Shown here piece by piece: positions 41,103 to 59,535 of a stretch of 64,000 nucleotides of DNA. Each line of letters starts with the position of its first letter. The stretch's first letter is position 1. A program made the translations under genes and the position numbers. The stretch spans positions 1-64,000 of the forward strand of contig CAUJIO010000004.1 of the NCBI GenBank assembly GCA_963205315.1, written 5' to 3'. A model generated the notes under the pieces. It ran no database searches. It had not been told where the DNA came from and was given only the letters and a program-made list of their open reading frames with translations. Origin of the DNA: Pseudomonadota bacterium (GTDB taxonomy: Bacteria; Pseudomonadota; Alphaproteobacteria; Rhizobiales; Aestuariivirgaceae).

Positions 41103-41263
41103 GAGTTTCTCCGAACAGATTTCAGAGAATGTATGCCGGGGAAACCGAAGAGCGCCAGCAGAATGTCAGCGTGTGGGGCCTGCGCGCGCAGCAAGTCCAG
41201 GCCACTTGGAAATCATCATTTTTCCTGAGACAGTAGCGAGTCTTCAAACCCGGAGTGAGACTC

Positions 41264-41788: not shown

Positions 41789-41799
41789 CGGAGTTTTCG

Positions 41800-43739: not shown

Positions 43740-44465
43740 CTAAGCGGTGTTGCCCGCGTCCACGGTCAGGACAGTTCCGGTGATATTGCGGCCCCCGTCT
43801 CCCAACAGGAACTCTACCGCACGGGCAACATCGTCCGCGGCTGCGAGCCTTTGAAGCGCACTGCGTCTTGCGATCTGTTGCCGCTTTTCTTCCGTGAGGC
43901 CCTCCGTCATCGCGGTTTGGATGAAGCCCGGAGCCACCGCATTGACGGTGATGCCGGCCCGGCCCACTTCGCGGGCCAACGACTTGGTGAAACCCGTCAT
44001 CGAGGCCTTCGTTGCAGCGTAGACGGAGAGCGCCGAATATCCGGTCGACGCGATGATCGAAGACATGTTGACGATGCGGCCATGGCCTTCCGCAAACATC
44101 GAGCGGATCACCTGGCGTGTGAGCGCGATGGGAGAAAGCGTGTTGATGCGAATCAATTGTTCGATCTGTTCGAGAGGCATGACGGCCAGAAGGCCTTCCG
44201 TGCCGATCCCGGCATTGTTGACAAGCCCATATATAGGACCATGTTGCTGACGCAGGGACCTTACGAACTCCGGCATCGCATCAATATCGCCGAGATCGAA
44301 CGGAGCGAAGAGAATGCCGCCTTGCGAAGCGGCAAGCATAGCGGCTTTGAGTTCTGGCGTTTCACTGCGTGCAACGGCAATTGCGCGATATCCTGCAAGA
44401 GCAAGCCGCTCACAGATGGCAAGACCAAGGCCACGGCTGCCGCCGGTAACGATCACATTACGCAT
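43740..44465 (-). CDS. FabG-like 3-oxoacyl-[carrier protein] reductase
   Basis: A 241-residue SDR: VTGGSRGLGLAI, NNAGIG, NMSSIIAS with serine, YAATKAS (Tyr/Lys), and FIQTAMTE as in FabG. Its start overlaps the acyl-AMP ligase stop by eight bases and the unit begins with a carrier protein, so a carrier-bound 3-oxo substrate is likely, although other oxo-acids remain possible. Confidence 0.88.
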   Translation of the reverse strand: MRNVIVTGGSRGLGLAICERLALAGYRAIAVARSETPELKAAMLAASQGGILFAPFDLGDIDAMPEFVRSLRQQHGPIYGLVNNAGIGTEGLLAVMPLEQIEQLIRINTLSPIALTRQVIRSMFAEGHGRIVNMSSIIASTGYSALSVYAATKASMTGFTKSLAREVGRAGITVNAVAPGFIQTAMTEGLTEEKRQQIARRSALQRLAAADDVARAVEFLLGDGGRNITGTVLTVDAGNTA

Positions 44466-45840
44466 GTTGACGGGACACCTTGCCCCCAGCGGTCATCTCG
44501 ATACTGGTCACGACATTCAAAAGCGCTGGAATCTTGTGGTTGGGAAGATATGCACGGCAGAGCGCCAGAATGTCCTGCTTGATTGCATCAGCATCATCGT
44601 CAGATCGACTCAAGACAATGTCGGCCACGACGATGGCGCCAAGGATAGGGCTCTTGCGTGGCTTCACACGCGACTGACGCACGGCATCGTGGCGATTGAT
44701 GACGGATTCGATCTCCTCGGGGTGAACCTTCAACCCACCCACGTTGATGATGCCGCCCCGGCGTCCAACAAAGAAGCAGCGCCCCTGGCGTATTTCCACC
44801 ATATCGCCAGTATCAACAAAGCCATCGTCTCCAATGAGATCGAGATCGGGCCGGCCTGCATAGGCAGAGGCCATGCGGCCCGATCGAAGGCGAAGCGCAC
44901 CATCGACCAGCCGTATCTCGACGCCGTTGCGAGGCGCATCGAGATAGGACGCAGGAAAGCCTTCGAGACCATCATCGACATCGAAGCCAACGCCGGCTTC
45001 CGTCGAAGCATAGGCGTGGCCGATCGATGCTCCCGGATGAGCCGCTCGCAAGGCGTCAAGCACACCCTGATCAACGATTTCGCCCGACAAGCGCACATAG
45101 GATGGGTGGAAGTGGTTGGAAGCCGCACTCATCAGCGTGCGCCGCCAGTGGGTCGGTGTACCGGAGACATGGGTCACTTTGGCAGCCTCAAGCCGGGCAA
45201 GATGATCGGCCAACGCCTCGCCGGGCCGCGACAGGATGAGACTCGCCCCGCCGAACATGGCACGAAGGAAAATCTGCAAGCCGCCATAGCGGCGAATGTC
45301 ATAGAAGGTGGCCCACACTGGCCGTGGCGTCGTATGTTGATATTGAGGAATGGCGCCGCTCAAACCCGCCAACGTATGGACCGCGATCTTGGGATCGCCT
45401 GTCGTTCCCGAGGTCAGCATCAACCACTCGGTCCGGCAACGTCCATCCAACGGAACATTTGGATCGCATTTTACATGACACCGGAACAGTGATGGCACGC
45501 CCAGGTGCTGGTAGGACTGAGGATCGGTGCAGACGATCGCATCAACTTCTGCATCGCGGATGATCGCGCTCAGCGCTTCGGTTCTTACATCGGGCGGCAC
45601 GAGCACCAGACGGCGGGCATGGCCATCAAGATCGATGAGGCAAAGCGCAGCCTCGATCTGTGTGAAGACCGCGATCAGGACAGATTTGCCTGCAAGATTG
45701 CGGCGCCCGGGCCCAAGCGGACTGCCTCTGTAGACCTCGCTCAAAGAAATCTCGAGGTTGCCGTCGCTCAGTACACTTGACGCCGGCACATCAGCCCTCG
45801 CCAGCGCCTGGCGAAGTGTCTCAGGCTGCGCGCCTGGCAT
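44458..45840 (-). CDS. Acyl/amino acid-AMP ligase (ANL superfamily)
   Basis: A 460-residue adenylate-forming enzyme: LTSGTTGDPKIAVHT (P-loop), YASTEAG (A5), FVDTGDMVEI (A7), RGGIINVGGLKVHPEE (A8) and a late lysine in GGKVSRQ (A10). At 460 residues it is short for an acyl-CoA synthetase, the N-terminal subdomain being reduced. It overlaps the upstream carrier-protein gene by 20 bases, so it probably charges that carrier with an acid of unknown identity. Confidence 0.87.
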   Translation of the reverse strand: MPGAQPETLRQALARADVPASSVLSDGNLEISLSEVYRGSPLGPGRRNLAGKSVLIAVFTQIEAALCLIDLDGHARRLVLVPPDVRTEALSAIIRDAEVDAIVCTDPQSYQHLGVPSLFRCHVKCDPNVPLDGRCRTEWLMLTSGTTGDPKIAVHTLAGLSGAIPQYQHTTPRPVWATFYDIRRYGGLQIFLRAMFGGASLILSRPGEALADHLARLEAAKVTHVSGTPTHWRRTLMSAASNHFHPSYVRLSGEIVDQGVLDALRAAHPGASIGHAYASTEAGVGFDVDDGLEGFPASYLDAPRNGVEIRLVDGALRLRSGRMASAYAGRPDLDLIGDDGFVDTGDMVEIRQGRCFFVGRRGGIINVGGLKVHPEEIESVINRHDAVRQSRVKPRKSPILGAIVVADIVLSRSDDDADAIKQDILALCRAYLPNHKIPALLNVVTSIEMTAGGKVSRQHA

Positions 45841-46072
45841 TTTCGTAAACTGCGAAGAATTCACCCAGCGTGACCGGAAATTCGATGTCGTCCGAGGCCG
45901 TAAACGGATCGTAACCAAGTTTGTCCTCGAGGCGCGCAACGAGGATGGCAAAGCACAGGCTGTCGAGCCCGGAGTCGAGCAGTTCCATGTCATCCGTCAG
46001 TGGACGGAGTACCTTGTTCTGCTCTTTGGCAACCTGCTCGATGGCAGAGATTATCATTAACCGTGCGGACAT
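45821..46072 (-). CDS. Acyl carrier protein
   Basis: An 83-residue carrier protein with S38 in LLDSGLDSLCFAILV as the phosphopantetheine site. GGAG lies eight bases before the ATG at 46072; the longer frame has no better site. It is first in the carrier-ligase-reductase unit and divergent from the GNAT-like/ThDP pair. It is distinct from the second carrier protein at 55485. Confidence 0.9.
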   Translation of the reverse strand: MSARLMIISAIEQVAKEQNKVLRPLTDDMELLDSGLDSLCFAILVARLEDKLGYDPFTASDDIEFPVTLGEFFAVYENARRAA

Positions 46073-46100
46073 TGATGTTGCTCCTTGAGACCGACAGTTT

Positions 46101-46108
46101 GTTATAAC
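46101..46108. promoter_or_regulatory. Palindrome GTTATAAC in divergent gap
   Basis: The 83-base gap between the carrier-protein gene and the GNAT-like gene contains a perfect GTTATAAC palindrome in a TTTG...CAAA setting. It may be a shared operator or a -10 element (TATAAC). Confidence 0.25.
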
Positions 46109-46155
46109 CAAAGCGTTGAATTCGGTGAAAATTGCTTGGAGTTAGGGTTAAGTCC

Positions 46156-47031
46156 ATGACACCCGCCGCCACCAGGGAGCGCGTACGTTGCCGCCTGATT
46201 TCCGAAGGTGATCTCGCCGCGGTCGCAGACCTTCTCTGCGAGGGCTTCAAGGGACGTCCGCGCGCCGTCTGGGAGGCTGGGCTTGAACGTCTGAGACTGC
46301 GGGACGCGCCCGTTGGCGCTCCCCGGTTTGGATATTGCCTGGAGGCTGGCGAACGCCTCGTGGGCGTGATCCTCATCATTGCATCGCGCCGTGAAATCAA
46401 TGGCGTCCAAGCCGACTATTCGAATGTTGCCAGCTGGTACGTCAAGACAGACTATCGGGCCTATGCGCAATTGCTGGTCTCGATTGCGCTGCGCAAGAAG
46501 GAAACAACCTATACCAACATCTCCCCTGCACCGCACACGTGGTCCATCGTCGAAAGCCAGGGCTACACACGCTATTGCAGCGGGCTGTTCTTTGCATTTG
46601 GCTTACTGTCGCGGCCTGTCAAAGGCGTACGGATCTCCGCCTTCGACGTGAATTCGCATCAAGGCATTGCCGAATTTGAGCTGCTGCGCCGCCATAACGA
46701 CATGGGTTGCAATGTTGTGGTTGCTGAAGACGGCGGAACAGGCACAGGCTTCGTGTTCCGCCGCTATTGCGTCCGTGGGGGACGACTTCCGATGCCGGGC
46801 ATGATCGCGCTGCACGTTCCCAATCAGACTGCCCTTGTCCGCTATGCCGGCAATCTGTCACGGCACTTCCTGTCCCTCGCGGCGCCCATTCTCGTCATGG
46901 ACGCCGATGAACCGGTGCGCGGGCTCCGCGGTGTCTATACACAGGCACGCGGGCGCAAGTACTTCAAGGGGCCACATAACCCCGGTCTGTGCCGTCTTGC
47001 TGACAGCGAATACGCAATCTTTGGAGTTTGA
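46156..47031 (+). CDS. GNAT-like acyltransferase
   Basis: A 291-residue protein whose first 160 residues read as a GNAT fold (RLISEGDLAAVADLLCEGF..., LVGVILIIASR, SYxN-like YSNVASWYV, YTNISPAPHTWSIVESQGYTRY). The C-terminal half (about 165-291) has no motif I recognise. It may acylate an amine using acyl-CoA or acyl-carrier protein. I start at ATG 46156; the longer frame uses a TTG. The ThDP enzyme follows five bases later. Confidence 0.65.
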   Translation: MTPAATRERVRCRLISEGDLAAVADLLCEGFKGRPRAVWEAGLERLRLRDAPVGAPRFGYCLEAGERLVGVILIIASRREINGVQADYSNVASWYVKTDYRAYAQLLVSIALRKKETTYTNISPAPHTWSIVESQGYTRYCSGLFFAFGLLSRPVKGVRISAFDVNSHQGIAEFELLRRHNDMGCNVVVAEDGGTGTGFVFRRYCVRGGRLPMPGMIALHVPNQTALVRYAGNLSRHFLSLAAPILVMDADEPVRGLRGVYTQARGRKYFKGPHNPGLCRLADSEYAIFGV

Positions 47032-47036
47032 GTCCC

Positions 47037-48716
47037 ATGGCAAAGCTTCGCACGGCGGCGCAGGTCCTGGTCGACCAGTTGGTCATCAACGGCATCGAAC
47101 ATGTGTTCTGTGTCCCGGGCGAGAGCTTTCTGCCCGTTCTGGATGCGCTGCATGATTCCCCCATTACGGTAACGGTTTGCCGCCAGGAAGGCGGAGCGGC
47201 AATGATGGCCGAGGCCATGGGCAAGGCAACCGGCAAGCCTGGGATCGTTTTCGTGACGCGAGGCCCAGGCGCCACCAACGCCTCTCCGGGCATCCACATC
47301 GCGCAACAGGATTCGACACCGCTCATCATGTTCGTGGGGCAAGTCGACCGCGGCATGAAAGAGCGAGGCGCTTTCCAGGAGATCGACTACCGCGCGGTCT
47401 TCGGCAGCATGACCAAATGGACGGCAGAGATCGACGACGGATCGCGCATGGCGGAATTTGTTTCCCGCGCATTCCATCAGGCCTCAGCAGGCAGACCAGG
47501 ACCGGTCGTTCTTGCGCTACCGGAGGACATGCTGAGTGACCAGGTCGAGATCCCCGACGCGCCCGCCTTCTCCGCGATCGAACCCGCGCCGTCACCTGAA
47601 GACCTTCAATCGTTTTCCGCCCTTCTCGCAGCAGCCGAACAACCACTCCTCATCCTTGGCGGGACCCGGTGGACGCCTGAGGCCTGCTCCAACATCCGGC
47701 AATTCGCAGAAACGCACCAATTGCCCGTCATCACCAGCTATCGCAGACTGCCGTTGTTCGATCCACTGCATCCGCAATATGCAGGCGATTTGGGAATCGG
47801 CCCCAATCCCAAGCTGATGAACCGGCTGAAGACTTCCGACCTCATTATTCTTGCCGGTGGCCGCATGGGCGAGATTCCGTCGCAGGGCTATACCCTGTTC
47901 GATAGCCCTGGTCCCGCGACCAAGCTCATTCATCTTTATCCCGACGCAATGGAAATTGGCCGGGTCTATGTACCGCATCTGGCTATCCAGGCTTCTCCGC
48001 TGCGCTTTGCCTCCGCCCTCGCCCAATTGCCGCCTCCAGTTCATCGCCCATGGGATGGCACGGGGGCTGTGGCACATGCGGACTATCTTGCATGGACGAA
48101 TGTGGCGACACCTCAACCCGGCGATGTGAATCTCGGAGAGGTGATGATTTGGCTGCGCGACAACCTGTCGAACGAGACCATCATCTGCAACGGCGCCGGA
48201 AACTACGCGTCGTGGATTCATCGCTTCTACCGCTTCCGCAATTTTGCCACCCACATCGCACCAACATCCGCTTCGATGGGATATGGCATGCCCTCCGCCG
48301 TGGCCATGCAGCGGCTGCATCCGGACCGGCAGGTCATCTCCATTAATGGAGATGGCGACTTCCTGATGAACGGTCAGGAGTTTGCCATTGCCGTGCAATA
48401 TGGATTGCCGATCATCGTGATCATCTGCGACAACGGCATCTATGGCACCATTCGCATGCATCAGGAGCGGGAGTATCCTGGCCGCCGGATTGCAACCGAC
48501 CTGCGCAATCCCGATTTTGCCGGCTATGCACGGGTGTTTGGCGGCTTTGGCGTGACGGTTGAAAAAACGGCCGACTTCGCAGCGGCATTCAGCGCGGCCA
48601 AAGCGTCGGGACAACCCTCCATCATACACCTCAAGATCTCGCCCGATGCCATTCTGCCCGGGACGACGCTGACGCGCATCCACGATCAGGCCAAACAACG
48701 CCTGGCCAGCCAGTAG
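47037..48716 (+). CDS. Thiamine diphosphate-dependent enzyme (acetolactate synthase-like)
   Basis: A 559-residue ThDP enzyme with the catalytic glutamate in VCRQEGGAAMMAEA, the middle domain LLILGGTRWTPEA, and the cofactor motif INGDGDFLMNGQEFAIAV followed by ICDNGIYG. It would decarboxylate a 2-oxo acid and make an acyloin, acid or aldehyde. It is not the housekeeping IlvB by context: no small subunit follows, and the partners are a GNAT-like protein and a class IV aminotransferase. Confidence 0.88.
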   Translation: MAKLRTAAQVLVDQLVINGIEHVFCVPGESFLPVLDALHDSPITVTVCRQEGGAAMMAEAMGKATGKPGIVFVTRGPGATNASPGIHIAQQDSTPLIMFVGQVDRGMKERGAFQEIDYRAVFGSMTKWTAEIDDGSRMAEFVSRAFHQASAGRPGPVVLALPEDMLSDQVEIPDAPAFSAIEPAPSPEDLQSFSALLAAAEQPLLILGGTRWTPEACSNIRQFAETHQLPVITSYRRLPLFDPLHPQYAGDLGIGPNPKLMNRLKTSDLIILAGGRMGEIPSQGYTLFDSPGPATKLIHLYPDAMEIGRVYVPHLAIQASPLRFASALAQLPPPVHRPWDGTGAVAHADYLAWTNVATPQPGDVNLGEVMIWLRDNLSNETIICNGAGNYASWIHRFYRFRNFATHIAPTSASMGYGMPSAVAMQRLHPDRQVISINGDGDFLMNGQEFAIAVQYGLPIIVIICDNGIYGTIRMHQEREYPGRRIATDLRNPDFAGYARVFGGFGVTVEKTADFAAAFSAAKASGQPSIIHLKISPDAILPGTTLTRIHDQAKQRLASQ

Positions 48717-48725
48717 CTATCCAGG

Positions 48726-49607: not shown

Positions 49608-49624
49608 AGCTGTTTTCCTCGCGA

Positions 49625-50083: not shown

Positions 50084-50190
50084 CTGGTTCTCTCCCTCGG
50101 GAACTATCTCGTCTGGTGCAGAACATGCATATCGCATACCAGCAGATGGCCGCTGTGGAGGCGTGCCGAAGTATATGAGAGTTGTGGTGA

Positions 50191-51105
50191 ATGGTTCTTG
50201 ATGCTCGTGCGAAACGATTGCTCGACATGCTGTCACTGTCCCGCAGTGGTCAGTTTGGCACATTAACCATCGATGCACGGCGGGCGGGCTTTGAAGGCCT
50301 CATGCGAATGGGTGCCCGGCCAGCCGTGGTGACAGAGGTCCGTGACCTGCTCGCCGGCGGCTGTCTGCCAATGCGAGTCTATCGCGACACAGTGAGTGCC
50401 GATCCTGCCGCACTGGTGTTCTTTCATGGAGGTGGATTGGTCGCCGGTAGCATCGAGACCCATGACGGGATCTGCCGTTCACTCGCCAAGAGTTCGGGTG
50501 CCAGTGTGTTCTCAGTCGGATATCGCCTGGCTCCCGAGAACAAATTCCCCGCCGCTCTTGAAGATGCAGCCTTTGCCGTGGGCTGGATTGCAGAACACGC
50601 GGACGATCTGGGCATTGATGCAGCGCGAATAGCAATTGGCGGCGATTCTGCCGGCGCGCTGCTGGCGGCCTTGATCTGCAATGGCCATCAGCCGGTCACT
50701 GCCGATATAAAGGCGCAGCTTCTGTTATGCCCGGTGCTCGACCTGATGGCGGATTTGCCTTCTCGGCGCGACTTCGGCTCTGGCTATCTCATCGATGCGA
50801 CGACCATTGCGCAGGATATCCGGCATTGCCTGGTCGACACGCAGTCAATAGATGCTTTGCCGTCTGCATTGATTGGCGCCGTCCAACACCTGCCCCCGCC
50901 GACCGTCATTGTGGCGGCTGAATTTGACCCGTTCCGGGACGAGGCGGCAATTTACCATAGCCAGATGCAGGCGGCGGGCGTGCCGGTCCGCTACAGCTGC
51001 CATCCCGGGATGGTTCACTCGTTTTACGGGCTTCCGGCACTGTTACGACAAGCGGAACCTGCACTGGCCGAGGCTGGCCGGAGCTTGTCAGAGTTCCTCC
51101 GCTAG
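50191..51105 (+). CDS. Alpha/beta hydrolase (hormone-sensitive lipase family)
   Basis: A 304-residue esterase-type hydrolase. FFHGGGLVAGS forms the oxyanion hole, IGGDSAGALLAA holds the nucleophilic serine, EFDPFRDEA gives the acid and GMVHSFY the histidine. In this setting it could release a product from a thioester or ester. Its stop overlaps that of the convergent acyl ligase by four bases. Confidence 0.9.
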   Translation: MVLDARAKRLLDMLSLSRSGQFGTLTIDARRAGFEGLMRMGARPAVVTEVRDLLAGGCLPMRVYRDTVSADPAALVFFHGGGLVAGSIETHDGICRSLAKSSGASVFSVGYRLAPENKFPAALEDAAFAVGWIAEHADDLGIDAARIAIGGDSAGALLAALICNGHQPVTADIKAQLLLCPVLDLMADLPSRRDFGSGYLIDATTIAQDIRHCLVDTQSIDALPSALIGAVQHLPPPTVIVAAEFDPFRDEAAIYHSQMQAAGVPVRYSCHPGMVHSFYGLPALLRQAEPALAEAGRSLSEFLR

Positions 51106-52868
51106 AAGTGAATGTGCCCGCTGATGATCTTGCGATGCAGTTCACCATCAAGCGCAACGTAACTACCGCGCTCACCAAGCCAGACAAAGATCTGGTCGCT
51201 TGTCGCGGCGGGATCAAAGCCATCACCGATCAGCGCCTGCTTCATGTGCTTGAAGGTCTCGGTGGTGGAGATATCCTTGCCGATGCGCAAGAACAGCGGA
51301 ACGGCGAAGGCGGGAAGCTGTGATGCGGTGTGGAGCCGGAATGCAGCGAGGTCAAAATCACTATCGACCTTCAGCATTGCCATGCCAGCCTTGCCGTCCA
51401 CGCCGGGCACGTCAATGCCATAGATTACTGCATCCCGGACGCCCGGCGCCGTTGCGGCGACATTGGCAACCTCGAGCGTCGAGACGTTCTCGCCCTTCCA
51501 ACGGAAGGTGTCACCGATCCGGTCGACGAAATAGTAGAAGCCGGCAGTATCAAAGCGCATCAGGTCGCCGGTGCGGAACCAGGCGTCACCAGCTGCGAAC
51601 ACACCGCGCAGCACCTTTCGTTCCGACTCGATCTGATCCGTATAGCCCTCGAAGCGGCCAGCGCCGTCACCGGCGCTGATGCGGCCTAGCGCTTCGCCAG
51701 CCTCACCGGCTTCCACTCGTACGCAGAAGCCATCAGCACCACGGACTGGCTGCCCGGTCCCGGGATCGAATTTGACGATAGCCGTTGGGAAACGATGCCG
51801 CAGGTAAGCAGGAACGCGCCCGATCGCACCCGGCTTACCCTCGACATTGAACAATGAGAAACTGCCCTCGGTCGCGGCATAGAACTCGATGATCTGTGGA
51901 ATGGCAAAGCGCTGCTGAAATCCGGTCCAGATGTCGGCACGCAATCCATTGCCGCAGGCCAGTCGCAATCGGTGATTTGGAACCGAGGCGGTGTCCGGCG
52001 ATGTCAGCAAATAGCGGCAAAGTTCGCCGATGTATTGAAACTGGGTGCAGTCCCAGCGGCAGATATCGTCCCAGAACTGGCGGGCAGAGAACTTCGGAGC
52101 AATGACAGTTGAGCCGCCGGCCACAAGTGTTGCGGCGACGGCGACGACACCGCCAACACTGTGATAGAGCGGCAGGCAATCATACATACGGTCGGCGGCC
52201 GTATTGCCAAGCAGGCCCTTGAACCACAGGGCCCAGTTCAGCAGACGGCGATGGCTTACGCGCGCCGCCTTGGGAAGACCCGTCGTTCCGGATGTGTAGA
52301 TCAGTAGAGCCGTATCATCGATCGTGATTGCTGTCTTCGGCGATGACAAGGCGCTGTCCCGCAGATCGAGACCGTCGTGATCCCAGACCCTCACGTCAGA
52401 TCCGGTGCCGAGAGCAGCCTCGCATGTCGTGACGAATGGTTGCTCGGCAATCACGTGCCGGGGAGCAGCAAGCTTCAGACAGTGCTCAAGCGACCGGCCA
52501 TTGAGGCTAGTATTGATCAAGGCGCAAACCATGCCGATTTTTGAAAGACCCAGCCACAGCGCCACATAGGCGGGCCGGTTTGACATCATGATGGCGACAC
52601 GGTCACCATGTTTCAGCCCCCGAGCTCCAGCCCAGACCGCATACTGGTCCATTCGCCTTGCGAGTTCGGCAAAGCTGAAGGACTCGGTATCAGATAGAAG
52701 TGCTGGCGCGTGGCAGTTGGTCACGGCCAGTTGCTCGATGAGATGCGGCAATAACCGGTCCGGGTTCTGGCTGATCGAGGCAGTGGCGGCCAGTGCATCA
52801 CCCCAGGCCAGCGACGCTGGGCGCACCTTCGGCAAGTCGGCTGTCATTTTTTCTGCTGGTGCATTCAT
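51102..52868 (-). CDS. FATP-like acyl-CoA synthetase / AMP-dependent ligase
   Basis: A 588-residue ANL enzyme of the long or very-long-chain acyl-CoA synthetase (FadD6/FATP-like) type: LIYTSGTTGLPKAARVSH, FYAATEGSFSLFN, WFRTGDLMRFD, DRIGDTFRWKGENVST and a late TTETFKHMK with the adenylation lysine. I start at 52868 (MNAPAEK...), where the protein becomes family-like; the ribosome site is weak. It may activate a fatty or other acid for the cluster. Confidence 0.87.
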   Translation of the reverse strand: MNAPAEKMTADLPKVRPASLAWGDALAATASISQNPDRLLPHLIEQLAVTNCHAPALLSDTESFSFAELARRMDQYAVWAGARGLKHGDRVAIMMSNRPAYVALWLGLSKIGMVCALINTSLNGRSLEHCLKLAAPRHVIAEQPFVTTCEAALGTGSDVRVWDHDGLDLRDSALSSPKTAITIDDTALLIYTSGTTGLPKAARVSHRRLLNWALWFKGLLGNTAADRMYDCLPLYHSVGGVVAVAATLVAGGSTVIAPKFSARQFWDDICRWDCTQFQYIGELCRYLLTSPDTASVPNHRLRLACGNGLRADIWTGFQQRFAIPQIIEFYAATEGSFSLFNVEGKPGAIGRVPAYLRHRFPTAIVKFDPGTGQPVRGADGFCVRVEAGEAGEALGRISAGDGAGRFEGYTDQIESERKVLRGVFAAGDAWFRTGDLMRFDTAGFYYFVDRIGDTFRWKGENVSTLEVANVAATAPGVRDAVIYGIDVPGVDGKAGMAMLKVDSDFDLAAFRLHTASQLPAFAVPLFLRIGKDISTTETFKHMKQALIGDGFDPAATSDQIFVWLGERGSYVALDGELHRKIISGHIHF

Positions 52869-53103
52869 GTTGTAGGCAGCTCCGACTGTCTCATTTCCGG
52901 ACGGTCCATATCCGTGTGTCGTTTCCGAACATGGGCCGCGAACAACGCAAATGTCGTGCAAGGTCCATGACAAAGCGAGTCCTGGCAGATATGCCCTCGC
53001 ATTAAGGTTTCCAAGCGAATGAACCTGCGCGGACAGCTGCAATTTTATATGATTTCGACATGTTGGGGAGTTCGCCCCGCCGAATGCGGAACACCGAGGT
53101 GAT
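52869..53103. other. Intergenic region before metY homologue
   Basis: 235 bases between divergent genes. Only a small hairpin, GGGG/CCCC (53065-53068/53075-53078), and the GGTGAT ribosome site before 53104 stand out. I looked for a SAM-II riboswitch, common before rhizobial met genes, and did not find its conserved elements. Confidence 0.4.
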
Positions 53104-54411
53104 ATGATGCGCGCTGAAACCCTGGCTATTCATGCTGGATATGAGCCGGAAGAGACCACGAAGGCGGTGGCGGTTCCAATCTATCAAACCGTTGCTTATA
53201 CGTTCGACAGCGCAGACCACGGCGCTGCCCTGTTCAATCTCGAAGCCGACGGATATCGCTACAGCCGCATCGCCAACCCCACCGTCGATGTGCTCGAGAA
53301 GCGTCTAGCGGCCCTTGAAGGCGGCGTCGCCGCCATCGCATTGGCCAGCGGCCAGGCCGCATTGCACTATGCCATGTCAAATGTCGCGGACTGTGGCGGC
53401 AACATCGTCAGTGTACCGCAACTCTATGGCACGACCCACACGTTGTTCACCCACATCCTCAGCAAGCAGGGGATAACAGTTCGCTTCGCGGCTTCCGACC
53501 AGGCCAGCGATATTGAAGCGCTGATCGATTCCGAAACACGCGCCGTATTCTGCGAGAGCATCGGGAACCCCGCCGGAAATATCTGCGATATCGAAGCGCT
53601 CGCTGAGTCCGCGCATCGCCACGGCGTGCCGCTCATCGTCGACAACACCGTTGCAACACCAATCCTGCTGCAGCCTATCGCCCATGGCGCCGACATCGTC
53701 ATTCATTCTCTGACGAAGTTCCTGGGAGGCCACGGCACGACAATGGGGGGCGCCATCATCGACAGCGGGCGTTTCCCGTGGAAGGACAACGCCAAGCGCT
53801 TTCCGCAATTCAACGAACCAGATGCCTCCTATCACGGCATGGTCTATGCGGACCGCTTTGGACCGCGCGCCTATATCGAACGTTGCCGCAGCGTCTATCA
53901 ACGCAACACCGGGGCAATCCTCCCGGCAATGAGCGCCTTCATGCTGATGCAAGGCATCGAGACAGTAGCCCTGCGCATGGAGCGGCACGTCGACAATGCG
54001 CTCAAGGTGGCACAGTATCTCGAAAGCGATCCGCGCGTTGCGTGGGTCAATCACGCGGGGCTACCCTCGTCGCCCTATCATGAACTGGCCCGCAAATATC
54101 TGAACGGCCGCGCGTCATCGCTCTTCACGTTCGGCGTGGTGGGCGGAGTCGAGACTGGCAAACAGTTTTATGACGCACTCAACCTCATCACGCGTCTCGT
54201 CAACATTGGCGATGCCAAGTCGCTAGCCTGCCATCCCGCTTCGACGACCCATCGGCAGATGTCGGCCGAAAATCAGGCACGTGCCGGCGTGAAGCCGGAA
54301 ATGATCCGCCTCAGCATCGGTATCGAACATATCGATGACATCATTGCCGATCTTGACCAGGCCCTCACGGCAGCGGCTGGTCAACATCGCCTGCCGATTG
54401 CCGCGGAGTGA
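53104..54411 (+). CDS. O-acetylhomoserine/O-succinylhomoserine sulfhydrylase family protein (MetY-like)
   Basis: A 435-residue cystathionine-gamma-synthase family PLP enzyme. YRYSRIANPTVDVLEKRLA, the PLP lysine in HSLTKFLGGHGTTMGG and the long insert (KDNAKRFPQFNEPDASYHGM) are typical of MetY. It replaces the acyl group of an activated homoserine by sulfide or another nucleophile. The activating enzyme (MetA) is 20 bases downstream. It may make methionine precursors or, given the cluster, an unusual homoserine-derived amino acid. Two adjacent in-frame ATGs are possible starts. Confidence 0.92.
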   Translation: MMRAETLAIHAGYEPEETTKAVAVPIYQTVAYTFDSADHGAALFNLEADGYRYSRIANPTVDVLEKRLAALEGGVAAIALASGQAALHYAMSNVADCGGNIVSVPQLYGTTHTLFTHILSKQGITVRFAASDQASDIEALIDSETRAVFCESIGNPAGNICDIEALAESAHRHGVPLIVDNTVATPILLQPIAHGADIVIHSLTKFLGGHGTTMGGAIIDSGRFPWKDNAKRFPQFNEPDASYHGMVYADRFGPRAYIERCRSVYQRNTGAILPAMSAFMLMQGIETVALRMERHVDNALKVAQYLESDPRVAWVNHAGLPSSPYHELARKYLNGRASSLFTFGVVGGVETGKQFYDALNLITRLVNIGDAKSLACHPASTTHRQMSAENQARAGVKPEMIRLSIGIEHIDDIIADLDQALTAAAGQHRLPIAAE

Positions 54412-54430
54412 TTTTTAAGGGAGACACGCC

Positions 54431-55420
54431 ATGAGCCTGTTCCTCGATTCGGCGACGCCGCGAAATGCCAATGGCACAAAACGCCCGGCTTTTCAGCCGC
54501 ATCGCCGCAAGATGAACGGTCCCGCCGTGAGACTGGCTCTTGTCAACAACATGCCGGACTCTGCGTTGGTGGCCACTGAACGCCAGTTCACAAGACTGGC
54601 CAGCGAGGCGCTGGAGGGCGCGCTGGACATTTCCTTGTTCCATATCCCAAGCCTGCCTCGCGGCCAGGACGCGAAGGCCATTCTTGCGCAGAACTATTCG
54701 CCCATCGATGAGATGCTCGATGCGGAGTTTGATGCGCTGATTGTGACCGGAAATGAACCGCGTGCAGCGAAGCTTGATGACGAACCCTATTGGCCTGATC
54801 TCGTCGAAATTGTCACATGGGCGCAGCAGAACACTGCGATCAGCCTGTGGTCCTGCCTCGCGGCGCATGGAGCTGTCCTGTATCTCGACGGCATCGAACG
54901 GCAGCGACTGCCCCGGAAGAAGTCAGGTGTGCTGAGCTGCAACGTGGCCGAGCCAGCACGTCACGGACTGCCGGCATCACTGACCGTCTGTCATTCGCGC
55001 ATGAATGAGGTGAGGACATCAGATCTCTTGGCGCGGGGCTACGAAATTGTATCCGAGGCTGCCGGTGGACATGTCGATGTCTTCGCCAAGACCAGCGGAA
55101 GCCGCTTCCTGTTTCTGCAGGGACATCCGGAATACGACGCAGATTCGCTGATGCGAGAATATCGCCGTGACGTCGGACGCTATCTGAATGGCAATCGCGA
55201 AACCTACCCCGATGTTCCTGAAAGCTATTTCGACTCGATGACGACTGTCCGCATGGAGAATTTCCGTGTCCTGGCCGAAAAGAGCCGCGACATGCGCCTT
55301 TTCGAGTCGTTCCCTCAAGCGACCCTGCGTTCGGGTTTGCAGCGAAAACTGGCGGACAGCGCCAGGGATATCTTCAGTGGCTGGATGGCTGACGTTGGCA
55401 GCCCGGCACCGGCCACCTGA
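54431..55420 (+). CDS. Homoserine O-succinyl/acetyltransferase family protein (MetA-like)
   Basis: A 329-residue MetA-family acyltransferase. The triad is present as C142 (LWSCLAAHGAV), H232 and E234 (GHPEYD). The N-terminus VRLALVNNMPDSALVATERQF and RMNEV are family-like, but about 30 extra residues at the front and the SCLAAHG context differ from E. coli MetA, so it is a divergent branch. GGGAG lies seven bases before the ATG. It ends before a strong hairpin. Acyl donor (acetyl- or succinyl-CoA) is not decided here. Confidence 0.88.
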   Translation: MSLFLDSATPRNANGTKRPAFQPHRRKMNGPAVRLALVNNMPDSALVATERQFTRLASEALEGALDISLFHIPSLPRGQDAKAILAQNYSPIDEMLDAEFDALIVTGNEPRAAKLDDEPYWPDLVEIVTWAQQNTAISLWSCLAAHGAVLYLDGIERQRLPRKKSGVLSCNVAEPARHGLPASLTVCHSRMNEVRTSDLLARGYEIVSEAAGGHVDVFAKTSGSRFLFLQGHPEYDADSLMREYRRDVGRYLNGNRETYPDVPESYFDSMTTVRMENFRVLAEKSRDMRLFESFPQATLRSGLQRKLADSARDIFSGWMADVGSPAPAT

Positions 55421-55430
55421 CGCTTGCATG

Positions 55431-55458
55431 AAAAAGGGGTGAATGTTCACCCCTTTTT
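55431..55458. terminator. Bidirectional rho-independent terminator
   Basis: A perfect 12-bp stem (AAAAAGGGGTGA/TCACCCCTTTTT, loop ATGT) sits between the MetA-like gene (plus) and the carrier-protein gene (minus). The A- and T-ends give a T-run on either strand. Confidence 0.92.
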
Positions 55459-55484
55459 GCGATCTGGTTATGCCTCAACGGGCC

Positions 55485-55799
55485 TTAGTCTGTCTTCGTC
55501 AGATTGGTCATCATCGCGGCGATGGCCGAACCGGAATTGAAGTTCTCCGGTGTAATGAAGTCTTGCGGAATCATCAGATCGAAAGCGGCTTCGATCCCAA
55601 GCATGACTTGCACCATCTCGACGGACGTAAAACCGGCATCGGTCAGGTTACTCGTCTCGTCGTATTCCCGCCCATTGGCTTGCAACGGCCTGATTTCCTG
55701 CAGGACTGTCATCACCGCGGAAAGCAAGCCGGATCGCGTTCCGGCCAAGTGTCCCGGAACATTTCGAATTGGATCGTCGGCCAGGTACATGCTGCTCAT
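55485..55799 (-). CDS. Carrier protein for amino acid:[carrier protein] ligase
   Basis: A 104-residue carrier protein with S59 in LTDAGFTSVEMVQVM as the phosphopantetheine site. Its long N-terminus (SSMYLADDPIRNVP...) and TPENFNSGSAIAAMM resemble the special carriers charged by seryl-tRNA-synthetase-like ligases, one of which is encoded at 57241. Start at 55799 has GGAGAT about nine bases upstream; a longer frame reaches 55877. It is divergent from the flavoprotein gene. Confidence 0.88.
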   Translation of the reverse strand: MSSMYLADDPIRNVPGHLAGTRSGLLSAVMTVLQEIRPLQANGREYDETSNLTDAGFTSVEMVQVMLGIEAAFDLMIPQDFITPENFNSGSAIAAMMTNLTKTD

Positions 55800-55998
55800 G
55801 GGAAGGGATCTCCTGAACTGTGAGAGCGCGTTATAAAACGTCGCTAAAATTTTCGGAGTAATTCGCCGATTCATCATGAATGTTAGCCGTTTGCGCTGCG
55901 CATCGGCAGATTATCGATCGCTTAACCTTGCGATGAGCCAGGATGCATCGAGGCATGGTGCTTGCATTTCCGATCTCCGACAACCCGGAGATTCCAGA

Positions 55999-57210
55999 AT
56001 GAACATCAGGACCGCGACCGACAGCACCCAATCCCTGAACGGCACCGCCGATATTCTTCGATTCAAGGCACGGACCGACGCGGTGTGTGCCGTAGCGCTT
56101 GCACATGCTGCGGATGTCGACACTTCGGCGCGTTTTCCGGCTGAGGCCATGGCCATGCTGAAAGAGCAGCACCTGATGGGAATATTCGTTCCAGCCGAAC
56201 TTGGAGGCGAGGGCGCCACAATGTCCGAGGCAGCCGAGATCTGTTATGCACTCGGCCGCGCGTGCGGTTCCGCAGGCATGATCTATGCCATGCATCTCGT
56301 GAAAGTTGCTTGCATTGTCAATCACGGCCTGGGCATTCAGTGGCAGGAGGACGTCCTCCGCCGTCTCCATACAGAACAGTTGCTGTTTGCATCGTCCACG
56401 ACTGAGGGAATGGGGGGCGGCAACGTGCGCTCAAGTGCGGCGGCAATTGTCGCTGACGGCAGCCGCATCACACTCGACCGCGATGCGTCGGTCATTTCAT
56501 ACGGAGCCTATGCCGATGGACTGGTGACCACGGCGCGGCGCGCCGGCGGATCAGATTCATCTGATCAAGTGCTTGTGGTGTTCATGAAGGAAGACTATGT
56601 GATGGAACTTACCGGCGGCTGGGATACGCTGGGAATGCGCGGCACCTGCTCCACCGGTTTCCGCCTCAAGGCCTCCGGCCTGCCTGAACAGGTTCTGCCT
56701 GTTCCCTATGATCGCATTCATGCCCAAACAATGACGCCTGCCGCCCATCTGCTATGGTCCAGCGTATGGGCCGGAATTGCTGCGGCTGCTGTGCAAAAAG
56801 CCGAACTCTTCGTGCGCAAGGCGATGCGCGGCAGCAACGGCCAGACACCGCCAGCGGCACCGCGGCTGGGCGAGGCCAAATCGAAGCTCCGACAACTCCG
56901 TGGACTGCTGGAGGTCTCCATCAATCGCTACGAAGCGGCGCATGATGACCAGCGTGCTTGGAGTTCGCTCGACTATCAGACCGCTCTGGCGATGACCAAA
57001 GTCGATGCCTCAGAACTGGCGGTCGACGCGGTGATGGCGAGTTATCGTGCCTGTGGACTGGCTGGATATCGCAACGACGGCGAGGTCAGCATCGGCCGCC
57101 ACCTGCGCGACATTCTCTCCTCTCCGATCATGATCAACAATGACCGGATCACCGCCAGCATGGCCGGCGCCGTTCTGATGAGCGGCGTTCCGCAGACCAT
57201 TCGTACCTAA
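55999..57210 (+). CDS. Acyl-CoA dehydrogenase-like flavoprotein
   Basis: A 403-residue acyl-CoA-dehydrogenase-fold flavoprotein with GIFVPAELGGEGATMSEAAEICYALGRACGS, SSTTEGMGGGNVRSS and a C-terminal GLAGYRNDGEVSIGRHLRDILSSPIMINNDRI. The usual catalytic glutamate context (EGT.Q) is not present, so its chemistry may differ; aminoacyl-carrier oxidation, as by prolyl-carrier dehydrogenases, is a possibility. ATG at 55999 has GGAG eight bases upstream. Known aa:CP ligase loci carry a similar gene. Confidence 0.85.
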   Translation: MNIRTATDSTQSLNGTADILRFKARTDAVCAVALAHAADVDTSARFPAEAMAMLKEQHLMGIFVPAELGGEGATMSEAAEICYALGRACGSAGMIYAMHLVKVACIVNHGLGIQWQEDVLRRLHTEQLLFASSTTEGMGGGNVRSSAAAIVADGSRITLDRDASVISYGAYADGLVTTARRAGGSDSSDQVLVVFMKEDYVMELTGGWDTLGMRGTCSTGFRLKASGLPEQVLPVPYDRIHAQTMTPAAHLLWSSVWAGIAAAAVQKAELFVRKAMRGSNGQTPPAAPRLGEAKSKLRQLRGLLEVSINRYEAAHDDQRAWSSLDYQTALAMTKVDASELAVDAVMASYRACGLAGYRNDGEVSIGRHLRDILSSPIMINNDRITASMAGAVLMSGVPQTIRT

Positions 57211-57240
57211 GCATATCAATACCGCTCCGGAGTTGCCGAC

Positions 57241-58179
57241 ATGAACATGCCCATCCAGCCTGCGCGCCAGACCACCGTTATCAAGACCGCGGAGATCGAT
57301 GCGATGGCAACGACACTGTTCCGCCCCATGGGTGCCGATGGTGTCTATGCCCGCACCGCAGACTATGAATTGGTGATCGAGAAGCTCAGCGCATTGATCT
57401 CGAGCTACCGCGATGCAGAGGCTGAAATCCTGCGCTTTCCGCCAGTCATGAGCCGCTTCCAGCTGGAGAAGTCGGGTTACCTGAAGAGCTTTCCCAATCT
57501 GCTTGGCTGCGTCTGCGCACTCCACGGCAGCGAATCGGAGATCAATCAAGCGGTCGGCCGTCATGACGCCGGCGGCGACTGGACAACATCTCTTTCCCCT
57601 GCCGACCTGGTATTGTCCCCCGCCGCCTGCTACCCGGTCTATCCGATCGCCGCGGCACGCGGCGTGGTTCCGGCAGAGGGATATGTGTTCGACATCGCGG
57701 CCGATGTGTTCCGTCACGAGCCCTCGCGCGAGATCGACCGGTTCCAATCTTTCCGCATGCGTGAGTATGTCTGCATCGGCGCCGCGCAACATGTATCGGA
57801 CTTTCGTGCGCGCTGGATGGACCGCGCACAGGAGATCGCCAGCAATCTTGCCCTTCCCTTCACGCTCGAAACGGCGAGCGATCCGTTCTTCGGACGAATG
57901 GGGCAGATGAAGGCGGTGGCGCAGCTTCAGGCGGCATTGAAATTCGAACTCCTCATTCCCGTCCGCAGTCATGAAAAGCAGACCGCCTGCATGAGCTTCA
58001 ACTATCACAAGGAACATTTCGGCACAGTGTGGGACATGAAGCTGCAAAGCGGAGAACCCGCACATTCGGGTTGCGTGGCCTTCGGCATGGACAGGCTGGC
58101 TGTGGCGATGTTCGCCATACATGGTCTTGACATGACGAAATGGCCCGCCGGCGTCCGCAAGACGCTGTCATTGTCGTGA
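57241..58179 (+). CDS. Amino acid:[carrier protein] ligase (class II aaRS homologue)
   Basis: A 312-residue catalytic core of an atypical seryl-tRNA synthetase. Motif 2 is VFRHEPSREIDRFQSFRMREYV and motif 3 is SGCVAFGMDRLA. C130, E175 and C278 match the zinc site described for the Bradyrhizobium japonicum enzyme. The N-terminal tRNA-binding coiled coil of SerRS is missing. Such ligases adenylate glycine or alanine (others possible) and load it on a dedicated carrier protein, here most likely that at 55485. It follows the flavoprotein gene by 30 bases and precedes a flippase gene. Confidence 0.93.
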   Translation: MNMPIQPARQTTVIKTAEIDAMATTLFRPMGADGVYARTADYELVIEKLSALISSYRDAEAEILRFPPVMSRFQLEKSGYLKSFPNLLGCVCALHGSESEINQAVGRHDAGGDWTTSLSPADLVLSPAACYPVYPIAAARGVVPAEGYVFDIAADVFRHEPSREIDRFQSFRMREYVCIGAAQHVSDFRARWMDRAQEIASNLALPFTLETASDPFFGRMGQMKAVAQLQAALKFELLIPVRSHEKQTACMSFNYHKEHFGTVWDMKLQSGEPAHSGCVAFGMDRLAVAMFAIHGLDMTKWPAGVRKTLSLS

Positions 58180-58209
58180 TTGCAGAGCTTCCCGGATCAA
58201 ACTGATTTC

Positions 58210-59535
58210 ATGTCCCTCTTTCGTACACTCAACGCCTTTGCTTCGCGCTCCTCGGTCATCATGCTGTCACGCCTTGCTGGCGCCGGCGTTGGCTTCCTGA
58301 CACAGTTCCTGCTCGTCAAGCTGATGGGAGCGCATCATCTCGGCCTGTTCTACGCCGCAAGCAGCCTTGCCGCCGTGCTTGGCGTCATCACAGCGCAAGG
58401 GTATCCGCAAGTGGCCGCTCGCTTTGTCGGGCGTTACCGCAACAAGCAGGATGAACTGCTTTTTTCCAGCTTTACAGGGCATGCGATGCGGGACGGAATT
58501 GTCTTCGCCGTGGCCGCGGCGCTGGGCGTGACAGCCTGGGCCTTTTACTGGCCCGGTCACGACATGGACGAAAGAATAGCCTATGCCGTTGCGGGTTGGA
58601 TGTTGCTGGCGATCGTTACGCTCAATATCCTGACCAATGTCGCCGGTGGCATGCGGCTTTTCAGTCTCTGCTACATGCCGGAAGGCATGTTGCGGCCGAT
58701 TGTTTTCTTTGCAGCTGTGGCACTGGCCGGGATCACCGGCTTCACGCTGTCGGCCGAAGCTGCGATCATCATTTTTGCCGCAATCACAGCACTGCTGGCG
58801 GCTGGTGTGGCTCTTATCCTTGGGCGCCAGATGCCAGTCCAGAAGCCTCAGCGGAACACACGTAAAGCATTGAAATGGCGCTGGCGCAGTGAAGCCTGGC
58901 ACCTCGTGCTCCTGGCCATATTCACCAACTTTTTCGCCGACGTCGGCATACTCGTGGCGGTTCCGTTTCTCAGCAATGCGCAAGTTGCAGTGTTCGGTCT
59001 GTGCCTCAAATTGGCACTGCTGGTCGGTTATTTCGTGCAGATCGGCCAGCAGATGGCCGTGCCCGACATGGCCGATGCAAGGCACGCCGGCGACGTGTCA
59101 CGGCTTCACAGGGCTGCATGGCGTTCGATCATCACCCCCGCTGCCATTACGGCCATCAGCATGGAGATCATCTATCTCGCCGGTGATCGGCTGCTCACCT
59201 TGTTTGGCCCTGAGTTCGCACAGGGGCGGGATGCACTTCTCATCCTGCTCGCGGCCCAGATGCTGCGGGCTCTTGCCGGCCCCAGCGCCCATCTGCTGAC
59301 CCTGAGCGGCATTCAGAGCATCAATCTTGGCATTGCTGTCTCGTCACTCGTCGTGCTCTTCATTGGCAGTGCGCTCCTGTCGCCACCGTTTGGAATTGAA
59401 GGTGCAGCATTGGCCGTGCTGCTGGCCTACGGCTACTGGATCGGCGTCAGTGCCATTGCCCTTCGCTGGTTGAAGGAACCATCAGTCGACGTGGTGTGGC
59501 TGGCTGTCTCGCGGCTGCAGACGAGGCCGGCATAG
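58210..59535 (+). CDS. Wzx/MATE-like flippase (polysaccharide biosynthesis membrane protein)
   Basis: A 441-residue membrane protein with about 12 hydrophobic helices; SRLAGAGVGFLTQFLLVKLMGAHHLG is the typical opening of Wzx/MurJ/MATE-type proteins. It would move a lipid-linked or small-molecule product across the inner membrane. I use ATG 58210; a TTG at 58180 would add ten residues, and neither has a good ribosome site. Last gene of the flavoprotein-ligase unit. Confidence 0.82.
   Translation: MSLFRTLNAFASRSSVIMLSRLAGAGVGFLTQFLLVKLMGAHHLGLFYAASSLAAVLGVITAQGYPQVAARFVGRYRNKQDELLFSSFTGHAMRDGIVFAVAAALGVTAWAFYWPGHDMDERIAYAVAGWMLLAIVTLNILTNVAGGMRLFSLCYMPEGMLRPIVFFAAVALAGITGFTLSAEAAIIIFAAITALLAAGVALILGRQMPVQKPQRNTRKALKWRWRSEAWHLVLLAIFTNFFADVGILVAVPFLSNAQVAVFGLCLKLALLVGYFVQIGQQMAVPDMADARHAGDVSRLHRAAWRSIITPAAITAISMEIIYLAGDRLLTLFGPEFAQGRDALLILLAAQMLRALAGPSAHLLTLSGIQSINLGIAVSSLVVLFIGSALLSPPFGIEGAALAVLLAYGYWIGVSAIALRWLKEPSVDVVWLAVSRLQTRPA

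What the first reader, a model, noticed from the sequence alone, without database searches (positions are those of the whole stretch)
55485..59535. Amino acid:[carrier protein] ligase locus with its own carrier, a flavoprotein and a flippase
The sequence shows a class II aaRS core without tRNA-binding domain, with C130, E175 and C278 in zinc-site positions; a 104-residue carrier with S59; an acyl-CoA-dehydrogenase-fold protein lacking the usual catalytic glutamate context; and a Wzx/MATE-like protein. Ligases of this kind are known to load Gly/Ala on carriers, but what happens next is not established. The flavoprotein could oxidise the carrier-bound amino acid, and the flippase could export the product.
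Basis: partly seen in the sequence, partly recalled or inferred. Interest (0 to 1): 0.8.

Follow-up and report, generated by a model that had tools for sequence, protein, structure and literature searches.

The report
Glycine-carrier enzyme cluster, probably glycan-linked
The four genes are real and three of them belong to a known but unsolved enzyme system that loads an amino acid (probably glycine) onto a small carrier protein; here they are one end of a 15-gene cluster, parts of which recur in many related bacteria, which gives new concrete leads to what the loaded amino acid is for.

Summary
Observation confirmed: carrier (55485-55799, minus strand, 104 aa, S59), acyl-CoA-dehydrogenase-fold protein, amino acid:[carrier protein] ligase (C130/E175/C278) and a weakly Wzx-like membrane protein. 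The ligase scores above the NF005479 cut-off; its closest solved relative is Bll0957. New here: (1) the ligase falls with 23 close relatives, the Bll0957 type, many of them in a larger, rearranged cluster, in the window 43740-59535: SDR, AMP ligase, second ACP, GNAT-like protein, ThDP enzyme, aminotransferase, cupin, esterase, FACL, and MetY and MetA paralogs. Apart from the second ACP (3, undercounted), these occur in 7-15 of 24 relatives and in 0 of 17 loci of less close ligases. (2) The flavoprotein family has no carboxylate at the two usual catalytic glutamate positions in 37 of 37 sequences. (3) Ten of 25 loci have a Wzx-like gene or Wzz-type genes, some with glycosyltransferases. Best reading: a glycyl-carrier pathway that makes a decoration for an exported glycan, as a 2010 note predicted for relatives; the flippase would then move glycan rather than a small product. 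Substrate, flavoprotein chemistry and product are unproven; 15 of 25 loci show no such glycan gene.

The parts
55485..55799 (-). CP1, aminoacyl carrier protein, 104 aa, phosphopantetheine serine S59 (ORF open from 55877)
   Evidence: AGGAGA before the ATG at 55799; closest solved relative is the Bll0957 carrier
55999..57210 (+). ACAD-fold flavoprotein, 403 aa (ORF open from 55876; GGAG before the ATG at 55999; start chosen by me)
57241..58179 (+). amino acid:[carrier protein] ligase, class II aaRS core, 312 aa, zinc-site positions C130, E175, C278
58210..59535 (+). Wzx/MOP-like membrane protein (ORF opens with TTG at 58180; 58210 is a later ATG, start uncertain)
   Evidence: in 4 of 24 relatives
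54431..55420 (+). MetA paralog (homoserine O-acyltransferase family)
   Evidence: PF04204 188 bits; a higher-scoring copy lies elsewhere in the genome (434.6 bits)
53104..54411 (+). MetY paralog (O-acylhomoserine sulfhydrylase family, PLP)
   Evidence: TIGR01326 606.9 over cut-off 495.1; 66-83% identical to 12 cluster copies, 48% to the best of 5 own-genome paralogs compared
51102..53042 (-). FACL, long-chain acyl-CoA synthetase type (PRK08279)
   Evidence: 705.3 over cut-off 625
50191..51105 (+). HSL-type alpha/beta hydrolase
   Evidence: PF07859 190.6 bits
49625..50083 (-). EutQ-like cupin (ORF open from 50278; start chosen by me)
   Evidence: PF05899 75.1 bits
48726..49607 (-). class IV aminotransferase (branched-chain type, PRK13356)
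   Evidence: 462.6 over cut-off 262
47028..48716 (+). ThDP-dependent acetolactate-synthase-like enzyme (PRK08199)
   Evidence: 854.6 over cut-off 539
46132..47031 (+). GNAT-like protein (possible acyltransferase)
   Evidence: weak Acetyltransf_9/_1 matches only; R109-A-Y-A-Q-L-L where acetyl-CoA GNATs have R/Q-x-x-G-x-G/A (motif recalled)
45821..46072 (-). ACP2, second carrier protein (GLDSL; ORF open from 46111; start chosen by me)
   Evidence: PF00550 23.7 bits over cut-off 20.8
44458..45840 (-). MenE-like AMP-forming ligase (ORF open from 45993; start chosen by me, would overlap the end of ACP2)
43740..44465 (-). SDR reductase, FabG-like

Best explanation
This is the right-hand end of a 15-gene biosynthetic cluster built round a Bll0957-type amino acid:[carrier protein] ligase. 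Most likely working: the ligase activates glycine and loads it on CP1 (by homology to a characterised family; not shown here). The ACAD-fold flavoprotein then acts on the glycyl thioester by a reaction other than ordinary alpha,beta-dehydrogenation, which glycine cannot undergo anyway: C-alpha-N oxidation or N-oxidation (inferred). A second module, AMP ligase, ACP2 and SDR, makes a second acyl-thioester; MetA and MetY make an O-acyl-homoserine-derived unit; the GNAT-like protein, in which the glycines of the usual CoA loop are missing, is the candidate transferase from a carrier to an amino acceptor (inferred). The product is most likely a decoration or building block of an exported glycan, which the Wzx-like protein flips in this lineage (inferred). 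Shown: gene content, recurrence, grouping of the ligases, active-site residues. Inferred: substrates, chemistry, product.
For: Ligase and carrier: NF005479 449 bits over 357, closest solved relatives Bll0957 and its carrier; loading of Gly, Ala or Ser by the family as tabulated in PMC9437257 (passages). 24 ligases including the window lie on one side of a branch (support 94/85). Partners in the stretches fetched for 24 close relatives: ACAD 24, CP1 21, SDR 15, AMPlig 15, GNAT 15, metY 12, metA 11, FACL 11, HSL 11, ThDP 11, cupin 9, AT4 7, FLIP 4, ACP2 3; in 17 loci of less close ligases ACAD 12, CP1 5 and 0 for every other one. Gene order differs between relatives; in G070 and G565 ACAD, LIG, metY and metA follow each other on one strand, and G070 has FACL, SDR, AMPlig, ACP2, GNAT and ThDP together on another contig. 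Paralogs distinct from other copies. Glycan link: Wzx-like protein in 5 of 25 loci, Wzz-type gene in 5 others, 4 of these 5 with a GINT1_N-type protein and 2 with Wzy- and GT4-type genes; 0 of 17 controls at 100 bits or more. A GNAT relative on a Shinella plasmid lies near a GINT-like gene, a glycosyltransferase, an LPS gene and GumC; a relative of the AMP ligase in Qingshengfaniella has an annotated ACP, SDR, acyltransferase and glycosyltransferase beside it. An earlier independent prediction for this ligase family: PMC2922099, note in proof (section read).
Against: No glycosyltransferase was found among the window's 15 genes, and 15 of 25 loci show neither flippase nor Wzz in the stretches fetched. 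The glycan queries were taken from members of the first set, which favours it, and one control locus (L054) has a weaker match to one of them (80 bits). The flippase is below curated cut-offs. GINT1_N genes lie elsewhere in 9 of the 13 genomes that have one, and none was found in the window's genome. MetA and MetY have no obvious place in glycan decoration. Bradyrhizobium-like members keep only CP1, ACAD, LIG and GNAT at the locus; the ThDP relative of one of them (G361) lies elsewhere without cluster partners. ThDP paralogs are common (own genome has a second at 59%). Nothing was measured. The GNAT model failed (pLDDT 51.8) and its profile found no solved relative at E up to 1.
Confidence: 0.42

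Rival explanations
1. The cluster makes a free small metabolite, for example a gamma-substituted 2-aminobutyrate from O-acylhomoserine as in rhizobitoxine or fusaric acid pathways, and the membrane protein exports it as a MATE-like pump.
For: MetA and MetY paralogs near the ligase; the C-terminal part of RtxA resembles an O-acetylhomoserine sulfhydrolase and is taken as dihydrorhizobitoxine synthase (PMC3222319, passage); FUB5 and FUB7 are a homoserine O-acetyltransferase and an O-acetylhomoserine (thiol-)lyase of the fusaric acid cluster (PMC6738028, passage); two carriers, ThDP enzyme and aminotransferase look like a natural-product pathway.
Against: The ligase is of the Bll0957 type, for which small amino acids (Gly, Ala, Ser) are reported (PMC9437257, passages); Wzz-type genes beside five relatives, with Wzy- and glycosyltransferase-type genes in two of them.
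Confidence: 0.3
2. CP1, ACAD, LIG and GNAT are the whole functional unit; the methionine-type genes and the rest are separate neighbours serving another pathway.
For: Bradyrhizobium-like genomes (5 of 5 examined widely) have of the cluster genes only these four at the locus; G634 has only CP1, ACAD and LIG.
Against: The other genes recur in rearranged order in several families, including one gammaproteobacterial MAG, and were not found near 17 less close ligases; MetA and MetY differ from other copies in the genome; in the tree the Bradyrhizobium-like rows nest next to G412, G526 and G492, which carry more cluster genes.
Confidence: 0.2
3. The flavoprotein is a two-component flavin monooxygenase (nitrososynthase/DszC-like) that N-hydroxylates carrier-bound glycine.
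For: Fold and profile hits include DszC, TdsC, KijD3, DnmZ and the nitrososynthase 3mxl among the dehydrogenases; no catalytic carboxylate at the usual dehydrogenase positions.
Against: The best hits in both searches are dehydrogenases; no flavin reductase was recognised among the 15 genes, although a general one could serve.
Confidence: 0.3

Closest known systems
Bll0957 amino acid:[carrier protein] ligase and its carrier, Bradyrhizobium (PDB 3mey, 4h2s)
   Same: Ligase aligned over residues 1-311 (478 bits), zinc-site residues at aligned positions, carrier-contact helix nearly the same, carrier similar; an acyl-CoA dehydrogenase gene bears the neighbouring tag bll0958 (PMC10888616 table)
   Different: The window has metA, metY, ThDP, ACP2 and other partners plus a flippase at the locus; Bradyrhizobium-like loci show CP1, ACAD, LIG, GNAT and, on the carrier side, mtnP and mtnA
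DUF1839-type aa:CP ligase loci (Rhizobium, Azospirillum, Mycetohabitans records; Atu2574 system of PMC2922099)
   Same: Carrier, ACAD and ligase in a row; 48 ACAD positions invariant over both groups
   Different: A DUF1839 protein follows the ligase (3 of 3 annotated records) and a glycoside hydrolase in 2 of 3; carrier co-directional; ligases 44-51% identical to the window's
Prolyl-ACP/PCP dehydrogenases (RedW model, 4irn)
   Same: ACAD fold, aminoacyl-carrier substrate (here inferred)
   Different: Weak similarity only (NF045652 29.7 bits of 650; 4irn 32.7 bits); no glutamate base at the usual positions here
Nitrososynthases and DszC-type monooxygenases
   Same: ACAD fold
   Different: 17-20% identity in the fold alignments; N-oxidation here untested
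Wzx-type flippases
   Same: Hydrophobic membrane protein with weak Polysacc_synt and WZX_like matches
   Different: Below curated cut-offs; no glycosyltransferases in the window cluster

Membership tests
Amino acid:[carrier protein] ligase | Class II SerRS-like core without tRNA-binding domain | tested here: met
   NF005479 449 bits over cut-off 357; 312 aa; Bll0957 match 478 bits over residues 1-311
Amino acid:[carrier protein] ligase | Cys-Glu-Cys zinc-site residues | tested here: met
   C130, E175, C278, identical at the aligned positions of Bll0957; role as zinc ligands recalled
Amino acid:[carrier protein] ligase | Adjacent carrier with phosphopantetheine serine | tested here: met
   CP1, S59 in GFTSVEM; here ACAD lies between carrier and ligase
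Amino acid:[carrier protein] ligase | Loads a small amino acid on the carrier | not testable with these tools
   Needs enzymology
Acyl-CoA dehydrogenase (enzyme, not fold) | ACAD fold | tested here: met
   PF02771, PF08028 and PF00441 over cut-off; Foldseek E 8e-16
Acyl-CoA dehydrogenase (enzyme, not fold) | Catalytic Glu at the MCAD/SCAD-type or IVD-type position | tested here: not met
   I/V at 379 (next to N/H/S/A at 380) and A/S/T/C at 249 in 37 of 37 sequences; the cyclohexenecarboxyl-CoA dehydrogenase Asp position is K 29, Q 5, N 2, E 1 (positions taken by me from alignments, base roles recalled)
DUF1839-type aa:CP ligase system | DUF1839 protein next to the ligase | tested here: not met
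   No DUF1839 match among the 15 cluster genes or the further neighbours scanned; none found in the whole genome, but there no control rang
Wzx flippase | Match to a curated flippase model | tested here: inconclusive
   25.8 bits of 28.2 (PF01943); 31.4 of 300 (NF041503)
Homoserine O-acyltransferase MetA | HTS family with Cys, His and Glu catalytic residues | tested here: met
   PF04204 188 bits; SC-L/R-AAH and GHPEY kept in 12 of 12 cluster copies aligned (roles recalled)
Homoserine O-acyltransferase MetA | Gly or Glu at the acyl-donor specificity position | tested here: not met
   Own canonical copy has E there; the window R; the 11 other cluster copies K 4, R 3, L 2, C 1, Q 1 (role recalled)
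O-acylhomoserine sulfhydrylase MetY | Match to the curated subfamily model | tested here: met
   TIGR01326 606.9 over 495.1; the equivalog models listed score below their own cut-offs, e.g. NF004757 670.9 of 790

The most novel reading that the evidence does not exclude
A previously undescribed carrier-protein pathway of alphaproteobacteria: glycine is loaded by an aaRS-derived ligase, modified on its carrier by a flavoenzyme family with a new active site lacking the usual ACAD bases, combined with a homoserine-derived unit from dedicated MetA and MetY and a second acyl-ACP, and put onto an exported glycan by a GNAT-like transferase that takes carrier-bound rather than CoA-bound donors.
Probability: 0.25. 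Interest if true: 0.82.

Novelty: new variant of a known kind. Interest (0 to 1): 0.6.

Why it matters
aaRS-derived amino acid:carrier ligases were described in 2010, and my searches found no paper that names their product. The recurrent partner set in the group of the crystallised Bll0957 enzyme names candidate enzymes of the pathway, separates it from the DUF1839 type, shows that the flavoenzyme is a distinct family common to both, and so makes the old question (what is the aminoacyl-carrier for?) directly testable, for example in the laboratory strain of Bradyrhizobium diazoefficiens.

Tried and rejected
NRPS role of the ligase: no condensation or NRPS domain among the 15 genes' Pfam matches. 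Plain methionine biosynthesis: a higher-scoring MetA lies elsewhere and the genome has 8 full-length Cys/Met PLP proteins, the cluster one included. DUF1839 in this genome: not found, but that search had no positive control. GNAT structure: low confidence, not used. Known cluster in print: the searches (open-access papers only; listings read) showed no paper on this gene set; of the 11 papers that cite the 2010 work I opened only PMC2922099 (passages and section 17) and PMC9437257 (passages). The 2010 PNAS paper is not held; what I say of its enzyme rests on PMC9437257 passages and recall. Genes EEP 42624-43505, SDR 41785-42531, cupin 41255-41788 and the membrane protein 59549-60913 were tested as partners and dropped (0 of 24). 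Papers opened for passages without use in the argument: PMC6594144, PMC12930378, PMC11941606.
Full report
What was checked. The four genes of the finding are present. The carrier is on the minus strand; with the start at 55799 it has 104 residues and S59, and the ligase has C130, E175 and C278. The ligase scores 449 bits against NCBIfam NF005479 (cut-off 357) and matches the solved Bll0957 protein over residues 1-311. The stretch in which entry 4h2w differs from native Bll0957 (its role in carrier contact is recalled) reads in the window nearly as in native Bll0957. The carrier is closest to the Bll0957 carrier, 4h2s chain C. So this part of the finding is a new member of a known family.

The flavoprotein. 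It has the acyl-CoA dehydrogenase fold (Pfam; AlphaFold model with mean pLDDT 79.0; Foldseek best E 8e-16). In the alignment with butyryl-CoA dehydrogenase the residue under the glutamate of YEGT, the usual base (recalled), is I379 in the numbering of the 403-residue protein; the isovaleryl-type position, placed by me from the same alignment and recall, is A249. I aligned 37 family members, the window and 36 relatives from both groups of ligase loci; 45 loci had a hit, several of them duplicates of one genome. Neither position holds a carboxylate in any of the 37; the Asp position of cyclohexenecarboxyl-CoA dehydrogenase (recalled; aligned) holds K in 29, Q in 5, N in 2 and E in 1. H99, H109, H250, W253, W257, M378, N381 and R383 are among 48 positions invariant in all 37. 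The family is thus coherent across both groups and unlikely to do ordinary acyl-CoA dehydrogenation; C-alpha-N oxidation or N-oxidation of glycyl-carrier fits better (inference). Solved relatives include dehydrogenases, which rank first, and the monooxygenases DszC, TdsC, KijD3 and DnmZ, so the reaction type is open.

A larger cluster. Comparing window proteins with 30 loci showed that metY, metA, FACL and HSL genes recur near the ligase; clustering of ORFs and wider fetching extended the set to 43740-59535, 15 genes. Families. In a presence table with score thresholds of my choosing, 24 genomes with a close ligase (58-72% identical) have: ACAD 24, CP1 21, SDR 15, AMPlig 15, GNAT 15, metY 12, metA 11, FACL 11, HSL 11, ThDP 11, cupin 9, AT4 7, FLIP 4, ACP2 3. 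In 17 loci of less close ligases (44-51%) ACAD is found in 12, CP1 in 5 and none of the others in any. The sequence examined was 15-76 kb a genome in the first set (overlapping pieces counted twice) and 17-20 kb in the second, so part of the contrast comes from length; but among the 15 of the first set examined over no more than 19.9 kb GNAT is still found in 9, AMPlig in 7, metY in 4 and metA in 3. The table undercounts ACP2: a motif scan found an ACP-like ORF just upstream of the AMP ligase in 10 of 14 loci scanned, and one of the four misses, G653, has a BLAST match. It also leaves out another contig of G070 that carries FACL, SDR, AMPlig, ACP2, GNAT and ThDP together. CP1 is divergent from ACAD in the 18 of 24 loci where the motif scan found it, and co-directional in the 4 of 12 control loci where it did. 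Five further genomes with a close ligase, all of the Bradyrhizobium-like genus, were found but only short loci of them were fetched (G684, G738, G751, G762, G786). That g5 is Bradyrhizobium-like is inferred from near identity of its ligase and carrier to those of Bll0957.

Sampling. Ligase matches: 16 of 385 genomes of the class at E up to 1e-20, 16 of 61 relatives at the same limit, 88 of 397 genomes of the order at E up to 1e-60; the contig scan returned 10 loci, of which L002 and L006 lie in genomes also reached as G386 and G140, as their equal contig lengths show. The tree has 41 rows chosen from the 57 loci with a ligase hit plus the window; duplicates, G449 and some distant rows were left out. 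The 24 close ligases, window included, lie on one side of a branch (94/85, just below the tool's star; 92% of bootstrap trees). The Bradyrhizobium-like rows nest with G412, G526 and G492 (100/99), which carry more cluster genes.

Paralogs. The genome has a second MetA that fits the family better (434.6 bits against 187.3 for the cluster copy). In 12 of 12 cluster copies aligned the Cys, His and Glu (catalytic, recalled) are kept, while the position that is E in the other copy is R in the window and K, R, L, C or Q in the 11 others. The cluster MetY is 66-83% identical to 12 cluster relatives but 48% to the best of 5 own-genome paralogs compared, of 7 further full-length ones. ThDP paralogs are less telling: 11 of 12 genomes searched have one at E up to 1e-60, and the own genome has a second at 59%. 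In Bradyrhizobium-like loci (5 of 5 examined) the carrier is followed by mtnP and mtnA, identified in one locus by NCBIfam and in the others by similarity; they are close relatives, so this counts as one observation. In B. diazoefficiens bll0957 and bll0958 are both in a table with values of 3.0 for the phaR mutant against wild type, as is metZ with 2.3 (PMC10888616, passages).

Glycan link. Five of 25 loci (window included) have the Wzx-like protein; five others have a Wzz-type gene, four of them with a GINT1_N-type protein, two with glycosyltransferase- and Wzy-type genes; 0 of 17 control loci match any of these queries at 100 bits or more, though L054 has an 80-bit match to one. The queries came from members of the first set, which favours it. 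GNAT relatives at about 35% identity lie among polysaccharide genes on a Shinella and a Methylocystis plasmid (two of 16 plasmid records with a match were examined), the Shinella one beside a GINT-like gene. GINT1_N matches occur in 13 of 23 genomes searched, by coordinates near the ligase in four of them, and not in the window's own genome. Of three annotated DUF1839-type records two have a glycoside hydrolase next in the row (a fourth record had no annotation). Aravind and colleagues predicted in 2010 that such systems join an amino acid to a cell-surface sugar and that a linked redox enzyme modifies it (PMC2922099, section read); they call that enzyme a Rossmann fold monooxygenase/dehydrogenase, which may or may not be the ACAD-fold protein seen here. 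Another paper places DUF1839 in glycan processing by context (PMC10318531, passages). This favours a glycan decoration over export of a small molecule, but no glycosyltransferase was found in the window's own cluster, and 15 of 25 loci show no such gene in the stretches fetched.

Conclusion. The finding is real, three of its four genes are of a known kind, and its interpretation is half right. The value lies in the extended cluster and in the flavoenzyme family: they turn an orphan carrier system into a pathway with candidate enzymes. Substrate, chemistry and product are unproven.

Noticed in passing
L044, L102, L103, L104, L105 (Bradyrhizobium-like): mtnP and mtnA (methylthioadenosine salvage) follow the carrier gene on its strand in 5 of 5 loci, a second methionine link beside metA/metY of the window.
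   Followed up: partly
L004:4776-6182: In the gammaproteobacterial MAG a PLP-dependent decarboxylase-family gene stands after metY where several others have metA.
   Followed up: partly
L009:8001-8931: The ligase is split over two frames in this MAG (frameshift or sequencing error); left as it is.
   Followed up: no
L022, L023, L028, L035-L043: Several genomes, nine of them of the window's own genus, carry distant homologs of the ligase in longer frames (about 400-525 aa), 30-35% identical; two of them form a separate branch in the tree.
   Followed up: no
window 59549-60913: 454-aa protein without any Pfam or NCBIfam match at E 0.01, convergent with the flippase; not found with the cluster elsewhere.
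   Followed up: partly
L108:13817-15388, L109:5336-6892, L112:4309-6114: Bacterial proteins matching GINT1_N (glucosamine inositolphosphorylceramide transferase, N-terminal) near Wzz-type genes.
   Followed up: partly
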